A stretch of DNA of 12,748 nucleotides from Cellvibrionaceae bacterium (lineage in GTDB: Bacteria; Pseudomonadota; Gammaproteobacteria; Pseudomonadales; Cellvibrionaceae): NCBI GenBank assembly GCA_027012915.1, contig JALUYN010000329.1, positions 1 to 12,748 of the forward strand, written 5' to 3'. Below, one piece after another: positions 3,446 through 10,272 of this stretch (positions within the stretch are counted from its first letter, which is position 1; each line of letters starts with the position of its first letter). The notes beneath the pieces are model-generated. The model made no database searches. It was given only the letters and a program-made list of their open reading frames with translations, and had not been told where the DNA came from. The translations under genes and the position numbers were made by a program.

Positions 3446-3479
3446 TTTAAGAATACGCCCGCATATACGCCTTGGTTAC

Positions 3480-3508
3480 TGCCCAAGCACCGCGTGCTCT
3501 TCTATACT
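3480..3508 (+). promoter_or_regulatory. Possible promoter for the acidic protein gene
   Basis: A good -10 hexamer TATACT lies at 3503-3508, 33 bp before the ATG at 3541. The hexamer 17 bp upstream (TGCCCA) is a poor -35, and TTGGTT at 3472-3477 is too far away (25 bp). The gene may therefore have a weak promoter of its own besides read-through from pepA-holC. Confidence 0.3.
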
Positions 3509-3540
3509 CGTTTTGCCAAATACTGAATAACCACTCTGCC

Positions 3541-5280
3541 ATGACCGATCGCAAAGAATCAAAGAACGCCATACTGGGGGAACTGGAATCCATCAAGGAT
3601 TTACTCAGTGAAGAAGAACTGGCCGATATCCCAGTACTGGAAGATACCGTTTTTAGCGCCTCAGAGTCAGTTTCTGACACGCAAGACAGTGAAGCGGATA
3701 ACGCCTCCGACGAGCTGGAATTTCCGCTGTTGACGGCTACGACTGACAACATACCCACCTTGAACGATACACTGGAACTGCCAGAAAAGGATGCAACGCC
3801 CGGCGCAATCGACACGCCGGAATTCGAGGATTTGCCACTGCTGGACGATATTCCCGAGTCGCCTCAAATTGAAGCGTTTAATGCCGATACTCAGGAAGCG
3901 GAAACGCTCGATTCCGAGATCGAAACTGCGATGGATCTTTCCGAATTGGAAAACGAAATCAGCAAAACCCTATCTGACATCGACGCTCTCCCGTCTACCG
4001 CTGAGCAATACACAACGCCGGATTTTGACAGCGACACCACCGCAAGCACCAACGATCAAGCCGCTGCAATGTTCGAAGATATCCTACAAGACGCTAAAGA
4101 ACAGGGACTCGACACCTCAGCGCTGGACAACTTCGAAACATTCCTGGAAATTTCAGACACCATCAACGTCGACAGCCAATTCAATGCTACGGACGAAAAA
4201 GATAAATCCATTGACGACGTTAGCGATTACGAAAGAGCCGTTAGCGATGAAGATAGAGCCATCAGCGATGAAGAAAGAACCATCAGCGACGACAATACAA
4301 GCGTTAGCCAGAACGAGCAGGTATTAGCGGAGGACGAAGATGCTCTCGACGTAACTGATGAGGCATCTGACGACGACAGCACTTCAGACACTTGGCCAAC
4401 ACCCCAGTTGACGCCTTTTACTGGATTGGAAGACATTGATGCAGAACAGCTCGATCAGAAAATAGAACAGGTATTGCACGAGGTCGAGCCAGATAACCTT
4501 TCAGAGGCAGCTCTCGAGGACCTCTCTCCGAAAGAGCATGGAGGTCTTCCAGCACCATTGTTGGCGCCCAATGCCCTACCCGGTCAGCAAAGTCTTTTTG
4601 ATGTCGAATCGAAAAACAATCAAGACACACTTTTGCCAACGGCTGACAGTAACACCGATACGGAAACAACAGAGGCGGAAGCAACAGAAGCTGATGTCCC
4701 AAAAATTGTCGAGAGTGTTGAAGAAAGCCGACAAAAGATTGAGAACACAGCCACCCAATCAGCACTGTCGGATGAACCCGTTTCTGAGGAGCAGGATGTC
4801 GAATTGTCCGACACTGCTCCAAGCGACAATGATCTAGTCGACAATGATCCACTCGCCAGCGAGCTCGATCACCTCGAACAATCACTCGCGGAAATTACCC
4901 AGGATCACAACGCTGCGGCGCCGGAAACATCCGAAGCCACATTTCCCAGCAGTATGCCAAAAAGTACGCCCAAAAGTACAAAAGGCGAAAACCCGTTTCT
5001 ACCCAAACACATTCGCGACCGATTGCATACCGATCGCAGTCTGATTGATGAAATCAAAAGTGACCCTGCCAACACATCAAACGCCGCAGCGAAGAAGATA
5101 CTGGAACCAGTACTGAATCAGGTAAATGTCGAAACCACTGAGAAACTTCTCGCCAATGATATTGATCAACGACAGTTGAGCAACATCATCAGTGATGTGT
5201 TGCGGGAACAAATGCCTGTGATCGAAGAAGAGATTCGTAAGCGGTTGCTGAAGAGCCTGAACAAGAACAAAGACAGTTAG
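3541..5280 (+). CDS. Large acidic, mostly disordered protein of unknown function, downstream of holC
   Basis: 579 residues from the ATG at 3541. An in-frame extension to 3472 exists but adds an unlikely tail, so the ATG beginning MTDRKESKNAILGELESIKD was preferred even though no clear Shine-Dalgarno precedes it. Residues 23-470 are rich in Asp, Glu, Ser and Thr with few aromatic residues, as in a disordered protein. Short repeated motifs of the type D-I-P-V-L-E-D recur near residues 29-35, 70-76 and 97-104. Four 7-residue repeats built on VSDE/ISDE occupy about 227-254. QQSLF at 349-353 resembles the beta-clamp-binding pentapeptide. The best-ordered part is the C-terminal 98 residues (482-579), beginning GENPFLPKHIRDRL, basic and predicted helical, ending in a charged helix and KNKDS. 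No signal peptide or membrane segment is seen. Position suggests the acidic proteins found between holC and valS in pseudomonads, but this is from memory. Function unknown. Confidence 0.85.
   Translation: MTDRKESKNAILGELESIKDLLSEEELADIPVLEDTVFSASESVSDTQDSEADNASDELEFPLLTATTDNIPTLNDTLELPEKDATPGAIDTPEFEDLPLLDDIPESPQIEAFNADTQEAETLDSEIETAMDLSELENEISKTLSDIDALPSTAEQYTTPDFDSDTTASTNDQAAAMFEDILQDAKEQGLDTSALDNFETFLEISDTINVDSQFNATDEKDKSIDDVSDYERAVSDEDRAISDEERTISDDNTSVSQNEQVLAEDEDALDVTDEASDDDSTSDTWPTPQLTPFTGLEDIDAEQLDQKIEQVLHEVEPDNLSEAALEDLSPKEHGGLPAPLLAPNALPGQQSLFDVESKNNQDTLLPTADSNTDTETTEAEATEADVPKIVESVEESRQKIENTATQSALSDEPVSEEQDVELSDTAPSDNDLVDNDPLASELDHLEQSLAEITQDHNAAAPETSEATFPSSMPKSTPKSTKGENPFLPKHIRDRLHTDRSLIDEIKSDPANTSNAAAKKILEPVLNQVNVETTEKLLANDIDQRQLSNIISDVLREQMPVIEEEIRKRLLKSLNKNKDS
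4219..4302 (+). repeat. Four 21-bp tandem repeats inside the acidic protein gene
   Basis: Four consecutive 21-bp units (4219-4239, 4240-4260, 4261-4281, 4282-4302) encode seven-residue repeats of the form V/I-S-D-x-E/D-x-A/T. Units 2 and 3 are most alike and unit 4 is degenerate. They look like internal duplications in a low-complexity acidic segment. Confidence 0.75.
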
Positions 5281-5461: not shown

Positions 5462-6697
5462 TTAGAAAGCGTATTGCAGACGTGCAGTAATGGCGTCGCC
5501 GTCGTCGTCACCGTTGATGTCTTCATCGGTTTCAACACTAACGTAGTTCAGAGACAGTTTCACATTGGAGTTAGCGTACCAGTTAACACCCAAAGTCAGA
5601 GCGTCAGCATCGTCACCACCTACCAAATTGATGTTAGTGCCGTCATCAGCGCTGATGTGGTCGATACGAGCAAAGACTTCCCAAGCGCCACTTTCAGACT
5701 TAGGCTTGATCTTGCCGAAGCTGGCGGAAGATTTCTTGTACTTGCGAGACTCACCAGTCAGGACGTAGCCAACCTGAACGTAATAACCGTCAGCTTCCAG
5801 GTCGTCGGAAACAACACCTTCTGGGGCGTCAATTTCACCGTCGTAGTACTCAGCCATGATGTGCAAAGGACCAGAAGCATAAGCGGCTTCCAAGTTGTAT
5901 ACACTCATCTCATCGCCGTCACCAGAAGTAAAACTTGGATTAAAACGGGTCGCATCGCCATTGTTCGCGCCGCGAATACCCAAGCGGGTACCAAAATCAT
6001 CAAAGTCATCACGAATGACATCGGCATCGGAATCACGCTGAGTAAAACCGGCACCCAAGTGCAGAACGGTATCGCCACTGTAGATAGGACGAACCACCAA
6101 ACGACCGGTAACAGAAGTGTCCAGCTCGTTGTCAGTGTCAACACCTTCTGTGAAAACACCCAGGCTGTAGCTCAGGAGATCGTTAGCCCCGTGAACTTTC
6201 AAACCGATGTTGTTGCCGGTATCAAAAGCATTAGCCACCAGTGAGCGCTCCATGGCAGTGATCCACTTGGAGCTGCCAGTGTCTTCCAAACCAAAGTTTT
6301 CTTTTTGCTGACCAGCAGTAATGTTGAACAGTTTACCGAAACCGGTGTAGGTTACGTGCAGTTGGTCAACACCAGCGTCGATGTCATCGCCAGCACCCAG
6401 GTTGTAAGACAAGCCGTATTTCCAATCACCAGCGTGGCCTTTTACTGCCAGGCGAGCACGACGGAAGAAAATGTCACTGTCACCGTTATCGTCCTGAGAA
6501 ATAACGTCGTCGTAGTCGTTGTAATCCAACTGAACGCGACCGCCAATTTTGAAGCTGTACTGGCCATCGGTAGTTTTAGCAGAAAAACCACCTTTGGTTT
6601 TGATGACGATATCTGCGCCATCGGTGGTTACAGTGCCAGCGTGAGCTTGTGCAGTTAAAGCGGCAATAGCAACAGGCAAAAGTGCTTTTTTCAACAT
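5462..6697 (-). CDS. Outer-membrane porin of the Porin_O_P (OprO/OprP) family
   Basis: 411 residues from the ATG at 6697, chosen because a GAGGGG (about 8 bases upstream) and a complete signal peptide, MLKKALLPVAIAALTAQAHA, follow this start; upstream in-frame codons lack both. Predicted cleavage is after A20 (AHA). The mature part has alternating beta-strand patterns, the family block FFRRARLAVKGHAGDWKYGL at about 77-96, many Asp-rich loops and a terminal Phe (LQYAF), the usual signal for outer-membrane beta-barrel assembly. OprP/OprO form trimeric anion channels selective for phosphate or polyphosphate. Here the loops are very acidic and only one Lys-rich stretch (about 318-333) is seen, so the phosphate selectivity of OprP should not be assumed. 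It has its own leader and is separated from hvfC by 279 bp, so co-regulation with hvfABC is not shown. Confidence 0.9.
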   Translation of the reverse strand: MLKKALLPVAIAALTAQAHAGTVTTDGADIVIKTKGGFSAKTTDGQYSFKIGGRVQLDYNDYDDVISQDDNGDSDIFFRRARLAVKGHAGDWKYGLSYNLGAGDDIDAGVDQLHVTYTGFGKLFNITAGQQKENFGLEDTGSSKWITAMERSLVANAFDTGNNIGLKVHGANDLLSYSLGVFTEGVDTDNELDTSVTGRLVVRPIYSGDTVLHLGAGFTQRDSDADVIRDDFDDFGTRLGIRGANNGDATRFNPSFTSGDGDEMSVYNLEAAYASGPLHIMAEYYDGEIDAPEGVVSDDLEADGYYVQVGYVLTGESRKYKKSSASFGKIKPKSESGAWEVFARIDHISADDGTNINLVGGDDADALTLGVNWYANSNVKLSLNYVSVETDEDINGDDDGDAITARLQYAF

Positions 6698-6928
6698 GGT
6701 ATTATCCCCTCTTAAGGACATCTAAATAATCTTGTTAGTAGACTTCAAAACTTTCTAACGCGACCAAGGTGTCTGATTGCGTTTGCGGGGAGTATTCTCT
6801 TGAATTTATATTTCAGAAATATGACCGAAGGGAAAAAAATGGAACTTTTTTAAATTTCGGGGGTATTTCGCACAAAAAACCGCTCAACCTGTTGTTTTTT
6901 GTACAAAAAATGGAGAAATGGCAAGAAA
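6698..6928 (-). promoter_or_regulatory. AT-rich leader and promoter region of the porin gene
   Basis: No coding sequence is supported here. Read leftward, the last 25 bases hold the porin ribosome-binding site (GAGGGG). A possible but weak sigma-70 promoter is TTGAAG with TTAGAT 17 bp further on, about 25-55 bp before the ATG. Further up are two related sites, TTTTTTGTACAAAAAA and TTTTTTGTGCGAAA, 31 bp apart. The region is long and AT-rich, which suits a strongly expressed, regulated porin, but no known regulator's box was recognised. Confidence 0.4.
6864..6911. promoter_or_regulatory. Paired palindromic sites upstream of the porin gene (possible operators)
   Basis: TTTTTTGTACAAAAAA at 6895-6910 is a perfect 16-bp palindrome. 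A second, imperfect copy on the minus strand, TTTTTTGTGCGAAA (plus 6866-6879), lies 31 bp away in the same orientation, close to three turns of the helix. The spacing and symmetry suit a dimeric regulator, but A/T-runs are frequent in this AT-rich spacer, so chance is possible. Confidence 0.3.
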
Positions 6929-6951
6929 TATTGCCCATATATAGGGCAATA
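6929..6951 (-). terminator. Probable terminator hairpin after hvfC
   Basis: TATTGCCC (6929-6936) and GGGCAATA (6944-6951) form a perfect 8-bp stem with a 7-base loop. On the minus strand the stem is followed by ATTTCTTG, only moderately T-rich, so it is a weak intrinsic terminator or a 3'-end protecting hairpin. A second small hairpin, CTAGCC/GGCTAG (6963-6968 with 6975-6980), overlaps the hvfC stop codon just before it. Confidence 0.5.
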
Positions 6952-6976
6952 ATTGGATAAGGCTAGCCCTAAAAGG

Positions 6977-7723
6977 CTAGATCAGAATGTCACTGTAATA
7001 GAGCTGCTGTAACAATTGATGGCCCATTTCGACCAATTTTTCGGGATCCGGGTGGCTCATTTCCACCGCCAATTGCAACAAAATCTGCTCTCCAGAGGTG
7101 CCCTTTTCTGCGGCAGCCAAGAGATTTAACAGGCGCACCGTCATGGCATTGCTGGCCATAAATCCCACTTCGTCGGCCCGATTGCGATAGACAATCAGAA
7201 AGGTCGGTTGCCCAGGGGGGTGTTCAGGCTGGTAGGCCTCGCCAATTTGATGAACCGGATACTGATAGGACAAACACCAGGCCAATGGCGATACAGTGGG
7301 TAGTCGATGCAATAATTCCCCTTCGGCCAGTTGAGGTCTCTCGCCGGGGATAGATTCCTGAGACACATCCAGCGCCAGTTCAACCCATTCATAGTGAGCC
7401 AGTTCTAGCATGAACTTTGGATCACAATCTCTGAGGTCGTGCTCTTCTTGCAAATATCGCAGAAACTCCTGACTCACCTCTAGAAAGTAAGGGCTCTCGG
7501 ACTGATGAGCACGAATAAAGCCGCGTACCAATTCTTGCCAATCGGCCTCACTATAGAGTGTGCGCAAAATGGGAAAGCCACCGGAAATAAAACCTTCGAT
7601 GTTTTTATAGATCAGATCGCGATAAATTTTGAGGCGACGCTCTTCGACATTGTCCGGGGCAGAATTAACTTCAGGATCGCGCAAATGATCAGCCAATTGT
7701 TTTTGGGTTTCAATAAAACTCAT
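6977..7723 (-). CDS. hvfC: HvfC-like DUF2063 partner protein of the MNIO enzyme
   Basis: 248 residues, usual for the family. The N-terminal half carries the DUF2063 pattern: RRLKIYRDLIYKNIEGFISG at about 29-48, then FPILRTLYSEADWQELVRGF and a PYFLEVSQEFLRYL block; the C-terminal half resembles the second HvfC domain. In characterised MNIO systems this protein binds the DUF692 enzyme and presents the precursor peptide to it. The ATG at 7723 was preferred over the GTG at 7732 because AAGG overlapping the hvfB stop codon (TAAGG) sits at the right distance from it. The hvfB stop and hvfC start are only 10 bases apart, so translation is probably coupled. The gene ends the hvfABC operon; no DoxX-type hvfD follows. 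No membrane segment or signal peptide is seen, so it acts in the cytoplasm before the precursor is exported. Confidence 0.93.
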   Translation of the reverse strand: MSFIETQKQLADHLRDPEVNSAPDNVEERRLKIYRDLIYKNIEGFISGGFPILRTLYSEADWQELVRGFIRAHQSESPYFLEVSQEFLRYLQEEHDLRDCDPKFMLELAHYEWVELALDVSQESIPGERPQLAEGELLHRLPTVSPLAWCLSYQYPVHQIGEAYQPEHPPGQPTFLIVYRNRADEVGFMASNAMTVRLLNLLAAAEKGTSGEQILLQLAVEMSHPDPEKLVEMGHQLLQQLYYSDILI

Positions 7724-7733
7724 TGAACACACC

Positions 7734-8606
7734 TTAACTTCGAACTGCTACAGACTGATCCAACGGTAATGTCTCAGTTTTGGCATATTTATTTTGCAGA
7801 CGTTTGATAATGGCAAGTTCGGACATTAGATGTTCTGCAGAAGGAATATTGAAGTCCCGCTCCAACAGAGTAGGTTTCACTCCAAACTGAGCATAGGCTT
7901 GATCGAGTAACTCCCAAACGGGATCGATCACATCGGCGCCGTGAGTATCGACACGTAGATCTTCGGCTTCGTCGAAGTGCCCTGCAACATGGATATACAC
8001 TGTGCGCTCACCTGGTAATTGCTTCAGGTAATCCACCGGGTCGTAGCGATGGTTAATGCTGTTAACGTAGATGTTGTTAACGTCCAACAGCAAATCACAA
8101 TCCGCTTCACTGATGACGGCATTGATAAAATCGATCTCTGACATTTCCTGTTGCGGCGCGCAATAGTAAGACACGTTTTCCATTGCGATACGCTCGCCCA
8201 AGAAGTCCTGAACTTGCTTTATGCGCCCACTAACATGCTTTACCGCTTCCTCGGTAAAAGGAATTGGCATCAAATCGTACAGATGACCGCTATCACTGCA
8301 ATAGCTTAGGTGTTCGGTATAGCGCATAACACCATGCTGTTTCATAAACGCTTTGATATCGCGCAGCAAATTTCTATCCAACGGATCAGTAGAACCGATC
8401 GATAGTGACAAGCCGTGACAGACAAACGGAAATCGCTCTGTATACTCTCTGAAACTTTTACCCATACGCCCACCGACATTGATCCAGTTTTCTGGAGCTA
8501 CTTCCATAAAGTGAATATCGTCGGAACTGTAATCGGTCAGATTATCCAGCAAAGAGCGTCGTAAACCTAAACCGGCAGAAAATGTATCGAGAGAAAGAGG
8601 ATTCAT
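7734..8606 (-). CDS. hvfB: HvfB-like multinuclear non-heme iron oxidative enzyme (MNIO, DUF692)
   Basis: 290 residues from the ATG at 8606. The TIM-barrel family blocks appear in order: AGLGLRR at 11-17, HFMEVAPENW at 32-41, HGLSLSIGS at 64-72, TEHLSYC at 97-103, MENVSYY at 142-148, LLLDVNNIYVNSINH at 172-186, IHVAGH at 205-210, DTHG at 220-223 and LLERDFNIP at 247-255. Residues expected to hold the iron cluster, by analogy with MbnB, include H64, E143, D175, H210, D220, H222 and E249; all are present, so the enzyme looks intact. The family oxidises cysteines in peptide precursors; HvfB of Haemophilus makes oxazolone/thioamide pairs at EGKCG motifs, exactly the motif in the upstream gene. No Shine-Dalgarno precedes the ATG; a TTG (8624) and GTG (8615) in frame upstream are not better. 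It probably depends on translation or mRNA structure set by hvfA. Confidence 0.95.
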   Translation of the reverse strand: MNPLSLDTFSAGLGLRRSLLDNLTDYSSDDIHFMEVAPENWINVGGRMGKSFREYTERFPFVCHGLSLSIGSTDPLDRNLLRDIKAFMKQHGVMRYTEHLSYCSDSGHLYDLMPIPFTEEAVKHVSGRIKQVQDFLGERIAMENVSYYCAPQQEMSEIDFINAVISEADCDLLLDVNNIYVNSINHRYDPVDYLKQLPGERTVYIHVAGHFDEAEDLRVDTHGADVIDPVWELLDQAYAQFGVKPTLLERDFNIPSAEHLMSELAIIKRLQNKYAKTETLPLDQSVAVRS

Positions 8607-8638
8607 GGGAGGCACACGTAACAAATTGGCGTCTGTCA

Positions 8639-8699
8639 GGCTTCATTTTGTTCAACCCAAACTGCAACAATGACAGTTTGGATTGAACCAAGTGAAGCC
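8639..8699 (-). other. Long intercistronic stem-loop between hvfA and hvfB
   Basis: The 26-base arms 8639-8664 and 8674-8699 pair across a 9-base loop (8665-8673). In the leftward transcript only two pairs are mismatched and one is a G-U wobble. No T-tract follows on either side, so it is not a standard Rho-independent terminator. It starts 26 bp past the hvfA stop and ends 33 bp before the hvfB ATG. Such structures commonly protect the upstream message from 3' exonucleases or partly stop RNA polymerase, which would give more HvfA precursor than HvfB/HvfC. Confidence 0.8.
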
Positions 8700-8724
8700 C
8701 AACATTCAGATTGGATAAATGCGA

Positions 8725-9135
8725 TTAACCGCCACACTTACCTTCGCCGCATTTTCCTTCATGGCCCTTACCTTTACCCATGGCCTTCCCCTTTTCGCTG
8801 GCATTGCTTCCACCACACTTACCTTCGCCACACTTGCCTTCTTTGTCGGCTTTAGAGCCACCACACTTACCTTCGCCGCACTTGCCTTCTTTGTCAGCTT
8901 TAGAGCCGCCGCACTTACCTTCGCCACACTTGCCTTCTTTATCGGCTTTGGAACCGCCGCATTTGCCTTCGCCACACTTACCCTCAGCGTGATTGCCCGC
9001 CAGGTTGTAACCGGATTCCAGAGGCTGCGCCGCGAAAGGATTTTCAGCGGCTGAAGCCATTGGAGCCAGAGCAACAGAGGCTACGAAAGCTGCGCCCACA
9101 GCAGCGGCGATTGGAGTTGTTTTGGTCTTAGACAT
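8725..9135 (-). CDS. hvfA: HvfA-like copper-binding RiPP precursor with ten EGKCG motifs
   Basis: 136 residues from the ATG at 9135, which has a good AAGGAG 5-6 bases upstream; a longer in-frame start at 9210 lacks one. Residues 1-29 form a Sec signal peptide (basic MSKTKTT, hydrophobic core, cleavage after ASA). The mature part begins AENPFAAQPLESGYNLAGN and then carries ten EGKCG motifs in five tandem pairs, with cysteines at 54, 59, 70, 75, 86, 91, 102, 107, 129 and 134 and no other cysteine. A Lys/Gly-rich linker (about 114-125) separates the last pair. In nontypeable Haemophilus HvfA, cysteines in the same motif are converted by HvfB/HvfC to oxazolone/thioamide pairs that bind Cu(I); the same job is inferred here: modification in the cytoplasm, Sec export, copper buffering in the periplasm or outside. 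Directly downstream are hvfB and hvfC. Confidence 0.93.
   Translation of the reverse strand: MSKTKTTPIAAAVGAAFVASVALAPMASAAENPFAAQPLESGYNLAGNHAEGKCGEGKCGGSKADKEGKCGEGKCGGSKADKEGKCGEGKCGGSKADKEGKCGEGKCGGSNASEKGKAMGKGKGHEGKCGEGKCGG
8809..8985 (-). repeat. hvfA: 48-bp tandem repeats coding the EGKCG pairs of HvfA
   Basis: Three full 48-bp units (8842-8985) each encode the 16 residues EGKCGEGKCGGSKADK without change, and a fourth, truncated unit follows to 8809. The units differ at a few mostly synonymous positions, so the duplications are not brand new and the amino-acid sequence is under constraint. The fifth EGKCG pair (8728-8760) lies outside the tandem block. Such repeats can gain or lose units by slippage or recombination. 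Confidence 0.9.
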
Positions 9136-9223
9136 TACTGTCTCCTTTTTATTGAACAACAGATAATTTGAATCAAACACTACCTTGCATAGGTAAGTAC
9201 GATAATGCATTCACATCGCTTAA

Positions 9224-9254
9224 GTCTGACCTGAGGAGCAAAAATTAGTTTCCC
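9224..9254 (-). promoter_or_regulatory. Possible ECF-sigma-type promoter of hvfABC
   Basis: On the minus strand GGGAAACT (9254-9247) is followed after 16 bp by GTCAGAC (9230-9224). This resembles the GAAC-like -35 and GTC-containing -10 of extracytoplasmic-function sigma factors, with suitable spacing, and would give a leader of about 80 bases before the hvfA ATG. No good sigma-70 -35/-10 pair was found in the 179-bp spacer. ECF control is known for some MNIO-RiPP operons. The -35 match is imperfect. Confidence 0.3.
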
Positions 9255-9314
9255 AACTTTTGATTTTTTTGAACAAAACTTTTCTTATACTGTTATAGCC
9301 GCTAACAAATTTAG

Positions 9315-10247
9315 TCAGGCAGTGTTGCGTTCAACGCTTATTTTTTGACCAGATAATTCTTCCAGCCAAACCAGCACTTGCAAAAAGTGATCTTCACACG
9401 CCTCGGGCCTGCTCAATATAGAGTTATAGTTGTAATTGCGCAGATTGCCACAGGGTTTCGCCACCTGAACGATTCTCACATCGTGACGCCCGAGCTCCTC
9501 TACCCATAGCCGGGTATCTTCCATGCCTCCTCGTACCGAGTCGCCCCGGCAACCCAGATACAGAGCCGGGGGCATCCCTTTAAGCTGCAGTGCGGCGCGA
9601 TAGTTATAGCCATCAGCGGGATCCTTCCATTCTGCATCTTGCTGCCACAGGCTGACTTCCCTTCGCAATCGAGAATCAATGCCCGCGCCCGGCATCCAGG
9701 ACTGCTCTTTTGATAACAGACCACCCAGGGAGGTAATTCCCTGCCACCACATCGCTTTGACGCTTTTTAGCAAAGACGATAGCTCGCAACGACGCGCGGC
9801 AGTAATCTGCACCATACCCAACACAGGCGCTGGCATAATATCCAAACGCCCATAGCAACTCGCCAGAAGCACCGAACCCAAACCGTGCCCCAACCAAAAC
9901 TGCGGGCAGGATGGCCGCAGTTTTGCCACTGCTGCCAAGTGCGCGGGAATCTCCTCGAGTATCAGCTGATGAAGCCCCACCTGACAGCGGAACTCAACCG
10001 CCAACGAAAAGCTCAGTTCGGCCACATAGACGTCGAAACCATGACTCGCGAGAAATGGCGCTAAACCGGCGTTGGGCTGCTCCCGCTGGATAAAACTGTC
10101 TGCGCCACCGCCTGTACCGTGCACCATAAATACGGGAACGCCCTCGGCATTGCTGCAAAATCGGTGCAGATCCAGCTTGCCCGAGGAAGTGTGTACACTG
10201 TGACACTCGTAATTCAGCAGGCTGTTACGCCAACTATAGGTTCCCAT
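9315..10247 (-). CDS. Alpha/beta-hydrolase-fold protein with a glycine in place of the catalytic serine
   Basis: 310 residues from the ATG at 10247, preceded by GGAG at 6 bases; a TTG start 12 bases earlier lacks a ribosome-binding site. The fold is recognised from VPVFMVHGTGGGADSF (37-52, the oxyanion-hole HG), followed by a strand-helix pattern, and FWLGHGLGS at 117-125 in the position of the nucleophile elbow. The normal G-x-S-x-G reads G120-H121-G122-L123-G124, so the nucleophilic serine is missing. D236 (in CRGDSVRG) and H287 (in CEDHFLQVL) lie where the acid and the histidine of the triad usually fall. No signal peptide or membrane segment is seen. It starts 25 bp after the hrpA stop and is probably co-transcribed with it. 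Either it has lost esterase/lipase activity and serves as a binding or scaffold protein, or it uses another chemistry. The substrate is unknown. Confidence 0.85.
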   Translation of the reverse strand: MGTYSWRNSLLNYECHSVHTSSGKLDLHRFCSNAEGVPVFMVHGTGGGADSFIQREQPNAGLAPFLASHGFDVYVAELSFSLAVEFRCQVGLHQLILEEIPAHLAAVAKLRPSCPQFWLGHGLGSVLLASCYGRLDIMPAPVLGMVQITAARRCELSSLLKSVKAMWWQGITSLGGLLSKEQSWMPGAGIDSRLRREVSLWQQDAEWKDPADGYNYRAALQLKGMPPALYLGCRGDSVRGGMEDTRLWVEELGRHDVRIVQVAKPCGNLRNYNYNSILSRPEACEDHFLQVLVWLEELSGQKISVERNTA

Positions 10248-10272
10248 CAAACACTCCAATCCATTGAGTTCA

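What the first reader, a model, noticed from the sequence alone, without database searches (positions are those of the whole stretch)
6977..9135. HvfABC-type copper-peptide operon with a ten-motif, signal-peptide-bearing precursor
Seen: an exported 136-residue protein with ten EGKCG motifs and no other cysteines, followed by DUF692 (all family blocks intact) and DUF2063 genes in the same direction. Known: in nontypeable Haemophilus, HvfB/HvfC convert EGKCG cysteines to oxazolone/thioamide pairs that bind Cu(I). Inferred: this operon makes a highly multivalent copper-binding peptide (up to ten modified cysteines). The DoxX-type gene often found with hvfABC is absent downstream, so the operon is a minimal version or relies on a gene elsewhere.
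Basis: partly seen in the sequence, partly recalled or inferred. Interest (0 to 1): 0.75.

Follow-up and report, generated by a model that had tools for sequence, protein, structure and literature searches.

The report
Ordinary copper-binding peptide operon, stress-type promoter
A bacterium carries a well-known kind of three-gene set that probably makes an exported peptide with up to ten chemically modified cysteines for holding copper; the only unusual part is a DNA switch in front of it that looks like an envelope-stress switch rather than a copper switch.

Summary
On the minus strand lie an exported 136-residue precursor with ten EGKCG motifs and no other cysteine (9135-8725), an HvfB-family MNIO/DUF692 enzyme (8606-7734) and an HvfC-family DUF2063 partner (7723-6977). 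The host genome is not held; it is Cellvibrionaceae, near Pseudomaricurvus. This is a new member of a known kind, the EGKCG-type captophorins. Ten motifs are not exceptional (8 of 70 related loci have ten or more). Lack of a linked DoxX is shared by the 30 nearest loci, as far as their DNA is held. New here: an ECF-sigma-type promoter element, GGAAACT-N16-GTCAGA at 9253-9224. It was found de novo in 70 hvfA upstream regions, holds when trained on the 30 nearest loci and tested on the other 50 and vice versa (20 of 42 and 16 of 27 at 1% false positives), and has the spacing of rpoE's own site. Against this, 1 of 42 further family genomes passes the same threshold. It suggests envelope- or oxidative-stress control rather than a copper sensor. 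Which sigma factor acts is inferred, not shown.

The parts
8725..9135 (-). hvfA: exported precursor, 136 aa, 10 EGKCG, 10 Cys
   Evidence: (NF050137 70.0 bits, cut-off 19.5)
9049..9135 (-). predicted Sec signal peptide, residues 1-29 (ends ASA)
   Evidence: sequence by eye, no program run; similar PLAAAVGAAF-type core in many relatives
9007..9042 (-). conserved NPFxxxxLxSGY segment after the signal peptide; candidate recognition site for the HvfC RRE domain (inferred)
   Evidence: N32 P33 F34 G42 Y43 invariant in 25 of 25 precursors that I chose for alignment
8728..8985 (-). core: four EGKCGEGKCG doublets at 16-residue period and a fifth doublet after an irregular linker
   Evidence: periods 16,16,16,27
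8634..8704 (-). long stem-loop in the hvfA-hvfB gap, no T-run after it; possible mRNA processing or stoichiometry element (inferred)
   Evidence: fold of 8730-8600, -48.3 kcal/mol, z -4.94, 0 of 200 shuffles as good
7734..8606 (-). hvfB: MNIO (DUF692) enzyme, 290 aa, with RR and DF pairs like those described for FonB (R16 R17, D251 F252 counted from the ATG at 8606)
6977..7723 (-). hvfC: DUF2063 plus RRE-type partner protein (PME1)
9224..9253 (-). ECF-sigma-type promoter element GGAAACT-N16-GTCAGA, starting 118 bp upstream of the hvfA ATG
   Evidence: 0 of 637 and 0 of 361 control upstream regions score as high
6929..6951 (-). weak terminator-like hairpin after hvfC
   Evidence: 3 found in 6600-9500, 3.1 expected by chance, so not significant

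Best explanation
It is an EGKCG-type captophorin operon (hvfABC). HvfC binds the precursor HvfA in the cytoplasm before export (inferred), and HvfB oxidises each Lys-Cys to a 5-thiooxazole with loss of 4 H, so up to ten per chain (inferred from homologues). The product is exported by Sec and chelates Cu(I) in the cell envelope (inferred). Transcription most likely starts at an ECF-sigma promoter 118 bp upstream of hvfA, so the operon would answer envelope or oxidative stress rather than a dedicated copper sensor. The best candidate sigma factor is RpoE/sigma-E (inferred; not in the window).
For: HvfB and HvfC above their curated cut-offs. Specificity and catalytic residues conserved in 81 HvfB sequences: RR (R in 79 and 81), DF (81 and 81). 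5-thiooxazole or copper binding shown for homologues in NTHi, Fontimonas, Neisseria and Microbulbifer. Promoter: the dyad AACT-N16-GTCA is in 25 of 70 hvfA upstream regions (24 of 69 without the window) against 6 or 7 for the best dyad in each of 10 shuffled sets, and in 4 of 998 control upstream regions, 3 of those 4 being DoxX genes of hvf loci. Train-and-test between near and far loci: 20 of 42 and 16 of 27 at 1% false positives. rpoE's own upstream has [AG]AACT-N15..17-GTC in 18 of 23 readable regions. ECF control of hvf/DoxX operons is known in H. influenzae (RpoE2) and Neisseria.
Against: No chemistry or expression was tested on this operon. In a further set of 42 family genomes the element is mostly absent: 1 of 42 at 1% and 7 of 42 at 5% false positives (where these regions were 260 bp and the controls 220 bp); AACT-N16-GTCA in 1 of 42, Fisher p 0.19. 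The near and far sets are not clean clades: L031-L080 hold Microbulbifer and Oceanicoccus loci, and L051/L055 are near-identical. hvfA starts were chosen by my own scoring. The hvfA sites (mostly GAAACT, GTCATA/GTCAGA) differ from the rpoE sites (GAACT, GTCTAG/GTCTGT), so another ECF factor may read them. In one relative the element also precedes a different ECF gene. The HvfA equivalog cut-off is not met. AlphaFold2 gave no confident fold for HvfA (pLDDT 42.3).
Confidence: 0.85

Rival explanations
1. The product carries methanobactin-type oxazolone/thioamide pairs and works as a secreted copper-acquisition chalkophore.
For: Original oxazolin assignment (told), and the NCBIfam name still says oxazolone/thioamide.
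Against: MbnB model 41.7 bits against a cut-off of 325; alkylation-HMBC NMR and 305-nm absorbance reassign oxazolin to 5-thiooxazole; none of the 8 window proteins scanned matched MbnC or a TonB-dependent receptor.
Confidence: 0.05
2. The operon is induced by copper through a copper sensor (CueR/CopR type).
For: Related MNIO clusters respond to copper or gold in other bacteria (Legionella GIG operon, title and abstract in the listing; PMC13097082).
Against: No CueR-like or CopR-like palindrome in the 179 bp upstream by a simple pattern check with consensus sequences recalled from memory; Microbulbifer MmrA-C were not detected with 0.1-0.2 mM copper; an ECF-type element is present instead.
Confidence: 0.15
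3. The promoter element is read by another ECF factor (for example one encoded with a DUF2282 bufferin cluster), not RpoE.
For: In Cellvibrionaceae SAT230 the pattern GAAACT-N16-GTCATAG occurs twice in a genome of about 4.9 Mb, at hvfA and 48 bp upstream of an ECF gene that follows DUF2282, MNIO and DUF2063 genes. The hvfA and rpoE sites differ at the same positions in most genomes.
Against: That ECF has a match at E <= 1e-12 in only 1 of 18 relatives, while 10 of those 18 have AACT-N16-GTC before hvfA; RpoE is in 17 of 17 searched.
Confidence: 0.35
4. The modified precursor is cut into small secreted peptides rather than kept as one multivalent chain.
For: The regular 16-residue units with K-containing linkers would allow processing (inference); whether EGKCG products are processed is unknown (PMC13097082).
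Against: No protease gene among the three operon genes; bulbicupramide was not detected in Microbulbifer cultures.
Confidence: 0.15

Closest known systems
mmrABC / bulbicupramide, Microbulbifer (PMC12538549; parts 1-4 of 7 read)
   Same: Three genes, EGKCG cassettes, MNIO plus DUF2063, Cu(I) binding; the tool places Microbulbifer genomes G014 and G017 in the same family as Pseudomaricurvus; in 4 of 4 Microbulbifer loci here hvfB lies downstream of hrpA as in the window (L030, L039, L058, L074) and no DoxX is linked
   Different: 5-8 Cys there, 10 here; HvfB 68-71% identical. Promoter in the four loci: N16 spacing in 1 (L030), N17 in 2, neither in 1; the published strain was not examined
hvfABCX / oxazolin, nontypeable H. 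influenzae (PMC13419390; part 1 of 6 read)
   Same: Signal peptide, EGKCG doublets, HvfB and HvfC, 5-thiooxazole by homology; ECF control there (RpoE2, PMC7907618, passages)
   Different: 6 modified Cys and a DoxX gene there
fonABC / fontiphorin, Fontimonas thermophila (PMC13097082; parts 1-4 of 6 read)
   Same: Three-gene cluster, EGKCG repeats, RR and DF enzyme residues
   Different: Seven 5-thiooxazoles there
Buf_EGKCG/oxazolin precursor group (PMC12452194; passages and section 15)
   Same: Variable number of repeats with two EGKCG each
   Different: 17-residue repeats and a beta-helix model are reported there; 16-residue period and no confident model here

Membership tests
HvfB-family MNIO maturase | NCBIfam NF003818 above cut-off; full DUF692 domain | tested here: met
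   443.6 v 360 bits; PF05114 positions 2-262 of 263
HvfC-family partner (PME1) | NF050145 above cut-off; DUF2063 plus RRE-type C-terminal domain | tested here: met
   315.3 v 142 bits; PF09836 and PF22106
EGKCG-type captophorin precursor | KCGExKCG doublets (NF050137) in a gene next to hvfB | tested here: met
   70.0 v 19.5 bits; 10 EGKCG
HvfA equivalog NF050188 (narrow model) | score above curated cut-off | tested here: not met
   79.6 v 95 bits; so filed under the broader domain family, not this equivalog
EGKCG-type captophorin | 5-thiooxazole on each Cys, Cu(I) binding | not testable with these tools
   inferred from homologues
Methanobactin | MbnB equivalog | tested here: not met
   TIGR04159 41.7 v 325 bits
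Bufferin (DUF2282 or Buf2) | BufB equivalog NF050167; DUF2282 precursor | tested here: not met
   265 v 310 bits; no Pfam family in the precursor
ECF sigma-factor regulon | -35/-10 element of ECF type at conserved distance | tested here: met
   sequence resemblance only, function not shown
RpoE (sigma-E) regulon | transcription depends on rpoE | tested here: inconclusive
   same block spacing as upstream of rpoE in 18 of 23 but different bases; no expression data

The most novel reading that the evidence does not exclude
EGKCG captophorins of many Gammaproteobacteria, this one included, belong to a sigma-E/ECF envelope- or oxidative-stress regulon kept through an unlinked promoter even where DoxX and any linked sigma gene are absent; copper released during envelope damage, not copper supply, would be what they answer. 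In one relative the same element sits before the ECF gene of a DUF2282 bufferin cluster, so one factor could run both captophorin types.
Probability: 0.45. Interest if true: 0.5.

Novelty: new member of a known kind. Interest (0 to 1): 0.35.

Why it matters
The operon itself adds one more example to a class of which more than 20,000 are reported (PMC13097082). The useful part is regulatory: a published puzzle is that the Microbulbifer homologue is conserved yet was not detected with or without added copper. An ECF-type promoter in front of many related operons makes a concrete, cheap test possible (envelope or oxidative stress, rpoE dependence) of what these peptides are for.

Tried and rejected
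Ten motifs as unusual: rejected by counts in relatives. DoxX absence as operon decay: rejected, no linked DoxX in the 30 closest loci. A single conserved ECF partner found through its own promoter: the SAT230 ECF gene looked like the answer but has a match in 1 of 18 relatives. Universality of the promoter in the family: tested on fetched upstream regions and not supported, 1 of 42 at 1% false positives. Genome-wide use of the motif to list a regulon: 33 sites in 30 genomes, 19 of them at hvfA (18 seen, one by identity with the L002 site), 14 elsewhere; the reversed control pattern gave 29, so no wider regulon could be read; two of the 14 were not looked at. The pattern was drawn from hvfA sites, so 19 of 33 is partly by construction. 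Beta-helix fold of HvfA: AlphaFold2 gave pLDDT 42.3, no fold. Sigma-70-like promoters in 6600-9500: 3 found against 4.2 expected. Rfam: nothing. Inverted-repeat finder: nothing, although folding shows the stem-loop. Plasmid search, near mode: no match.

Rows dropped before counts: 2 of 72 upstream regions shorter than 120 bp (L064, L079); 10 of 80 loci without a readable precursor; of 48 further genomes, 3 without a recognisable hvfA (one a cut fragment) and 3 near-duplicates, leaving 42, 4 of 27 loci in which my script found no rpoE frame.

Full report
What is there. The window looks like chromosomal DNA of a Cellvibrionaceae bacterium: its leucyl aminopeptidase is closest to Pseudomaricurvus sp. 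HS19 (67%) among 97 of 100 sampled family genomes with a match, and no whole genome is held for it. On the minus strand lie, in order, hrpA, an alpha/beta-hydrolase-like gene, hvfA, hvfB, hvfC, and then an OprO/P-like porin. HvfA is 136 aa with ten EGKCG and ten cysteines. HvfB and HvfC pass their curated family cut-offs; HvfA passes the domain model but not the narrow HvfA equivalog.

Place in the family. The EGKCG class is published under several names (oxazolin, fontiphorin, gonophorin, bulbicupramide, Buf_EGKCG, captophorin). I read part 1 of 6 of PMC13419390, parts 1-4 of 6 of PMC13097082, parts 1-4 of 7 of PMC12538549, and passages plus section 15 of PMC12452194. These assign 5-thiooxazole, not oxazolone/thioamide (for bulbicupramide tentatively), and show copper binding. 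The window's HvfB has Arg-Arg and Asp-Phe pairs like those that PMC13097082 discusses for FonB; they are near-invariant in 81 sequences (equated by motif, not by structure or alignment to FonB).

Number of motifs. In 70 related loci with a readable precursor the count of EGKCG runs from 0 to 13, commonest 8, with ten or more in 8 of 70; in the 120 listed best protein hits (of 6894) ten or more in 9 of 120 (both sets are biased towards close relatives). Pseudomaricurvus alkylphenolicus has 12. The 16-residue period of the window is the commonest in these sets (216 intervals against 65 for 17 residues).

Neighbourhood. hrpA lies upstream in the same direction, within the DNA held, in 25 of the 30 closest loci and 31 of 80 overall; some of the others are cut by contig ends. 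The hydrolase is found in 8 of 80 and the porin in 4 of 80. DoxX is within 4 kb of hvfB in 35 of 80 loci, three of these weak matches, and in none of the 30 closest. DoxX genes occur somewhere in 17 of 18 relatives' genomes, and in 7 of 14 control genomes. In a family sample 48 of 80 genomes have an HvfB at E <= 1e-80, so the operon is common but not universal.

Promoter. A search for any two 4-mers 14-20 bases apart in 70 hvfA upstream regions (the window is one of them) put AACT-N16-GTCA first with 25 regions; the best dyad in each of ten shuffled sets reached 6 or 7. In 998 upstream regions of other long ORFs of the same loci it occurs 4 times: three before DoxX genes of hvf loci and one before a glutamate-synthase-like gene. 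A weight matrix trained on loci L001-L030 finds 20 of 42 in L031-L080 at 1% false positives, and the reverse 16 of 27, at median distances of about 128 and 115 bases from the start; the window scores above every control both times. The two sets are nearer and farther relatives by HvfB, not strict clades, and related loci inflate in-sample counts: 34 sites fall to 27 after removing near-identical ones. Result against: of 42 further family genomes only 1 passes the 1% threshold and 7 the 5% threshold, and the plain dyad is in 1 of 42 (Fisher p 0.19). So the element is shared by distant Gammaproteobacteria but is missing or changed in most of the further Cellvibrionaceae looked at.

Which sigma factor. 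RpoE (TIGR02939, 317.1 v 236.15 bits for L135) is present in 17 of 17 relatives searched with it and in the ten genomes by clustering. Its own upstream region has the same block spacing in 18 of 23, but with GAACT and GTCTAG or GTCTGT where hvfA mostly has GAAACT and GTCATA or GTCAGA. In SAT230 the hvfA version also precedes an ECF gene behind DUF2282, MNIO and DUF2063 genes. Published precedents: RpoE2 controls the hvf/DoxX operon after hypochlorite in H. influenzae (PMC7907618, passages); [quoted passage not shown] sigma-F controls DUF2282 clusters in Caulobacter (PMC3511200, passages). In the searches I saw no title or abstract reporting this element before EGKCG genes; the library lacks most subscription journals.

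Mechanism, step by step. Shown here: gene content, repeats, conserved residues, the promoter-like element, and the hvfA-hvfB stem-loop (-48.3 kcal/mol, z -4.94). Shown elsewhere for homologues: 5-thiooxazole installation and copper binding. Inferred: recognition of the NPFxxxxLxSGY segment by HvfC, export after modification, ten modified sites, ECF control, and a buffering role in the envelope.

Noticed in passing
window 8634-8704 (minus strand): Strong stem-loop in the gap between hvfA and hvfB without a T-run. In relatives 11 of 61 gaps fold with z < -3 (30 mononucleotide shuffles each; gaps run to the first matched hvfB residue). May set the precursor-to-enzyme ratio.
   Followed up: partly
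L100 6165-9388: Cellvibrionaceae SAT230 carries a DUF2282 bufferin, MNIO, DUF2063, ECF sigma and a downstream protein without family match (possible anti-sigma); the ECF gene has the hvfA-type element 48 bp upstream.
   Followed up: partly
window 3472-5280: 602-residue acidic low-complexity ORF after holC, with 21-bp tandem repeats at 4222-4289; no Pfam or NCBIfam match.
   Followed up: no
L043: A contig labelled 'Halobacteria archaeon' holds hvfA, hvfB, hvfC and DoxX resembling gammaproteobacterial ones; possibly a mislabelled or contaminated MAG.
   Followed up: no
G065:C1:3347395-3348207 and G073:C1:2332667-2333512: hvfB matches with one in-frame stop each, 2 of 48 family genomes; pseudogene, end of the frame or sequencing error.
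   Followed up: no
window 9315-10259: Alpha/beta-hydrolase-like gene between hrpA and hvfA, found in 8 of 80 loci; below the Pfam cut-off (21.3 v 26.3 bits), function unknown.
   Followed up: no
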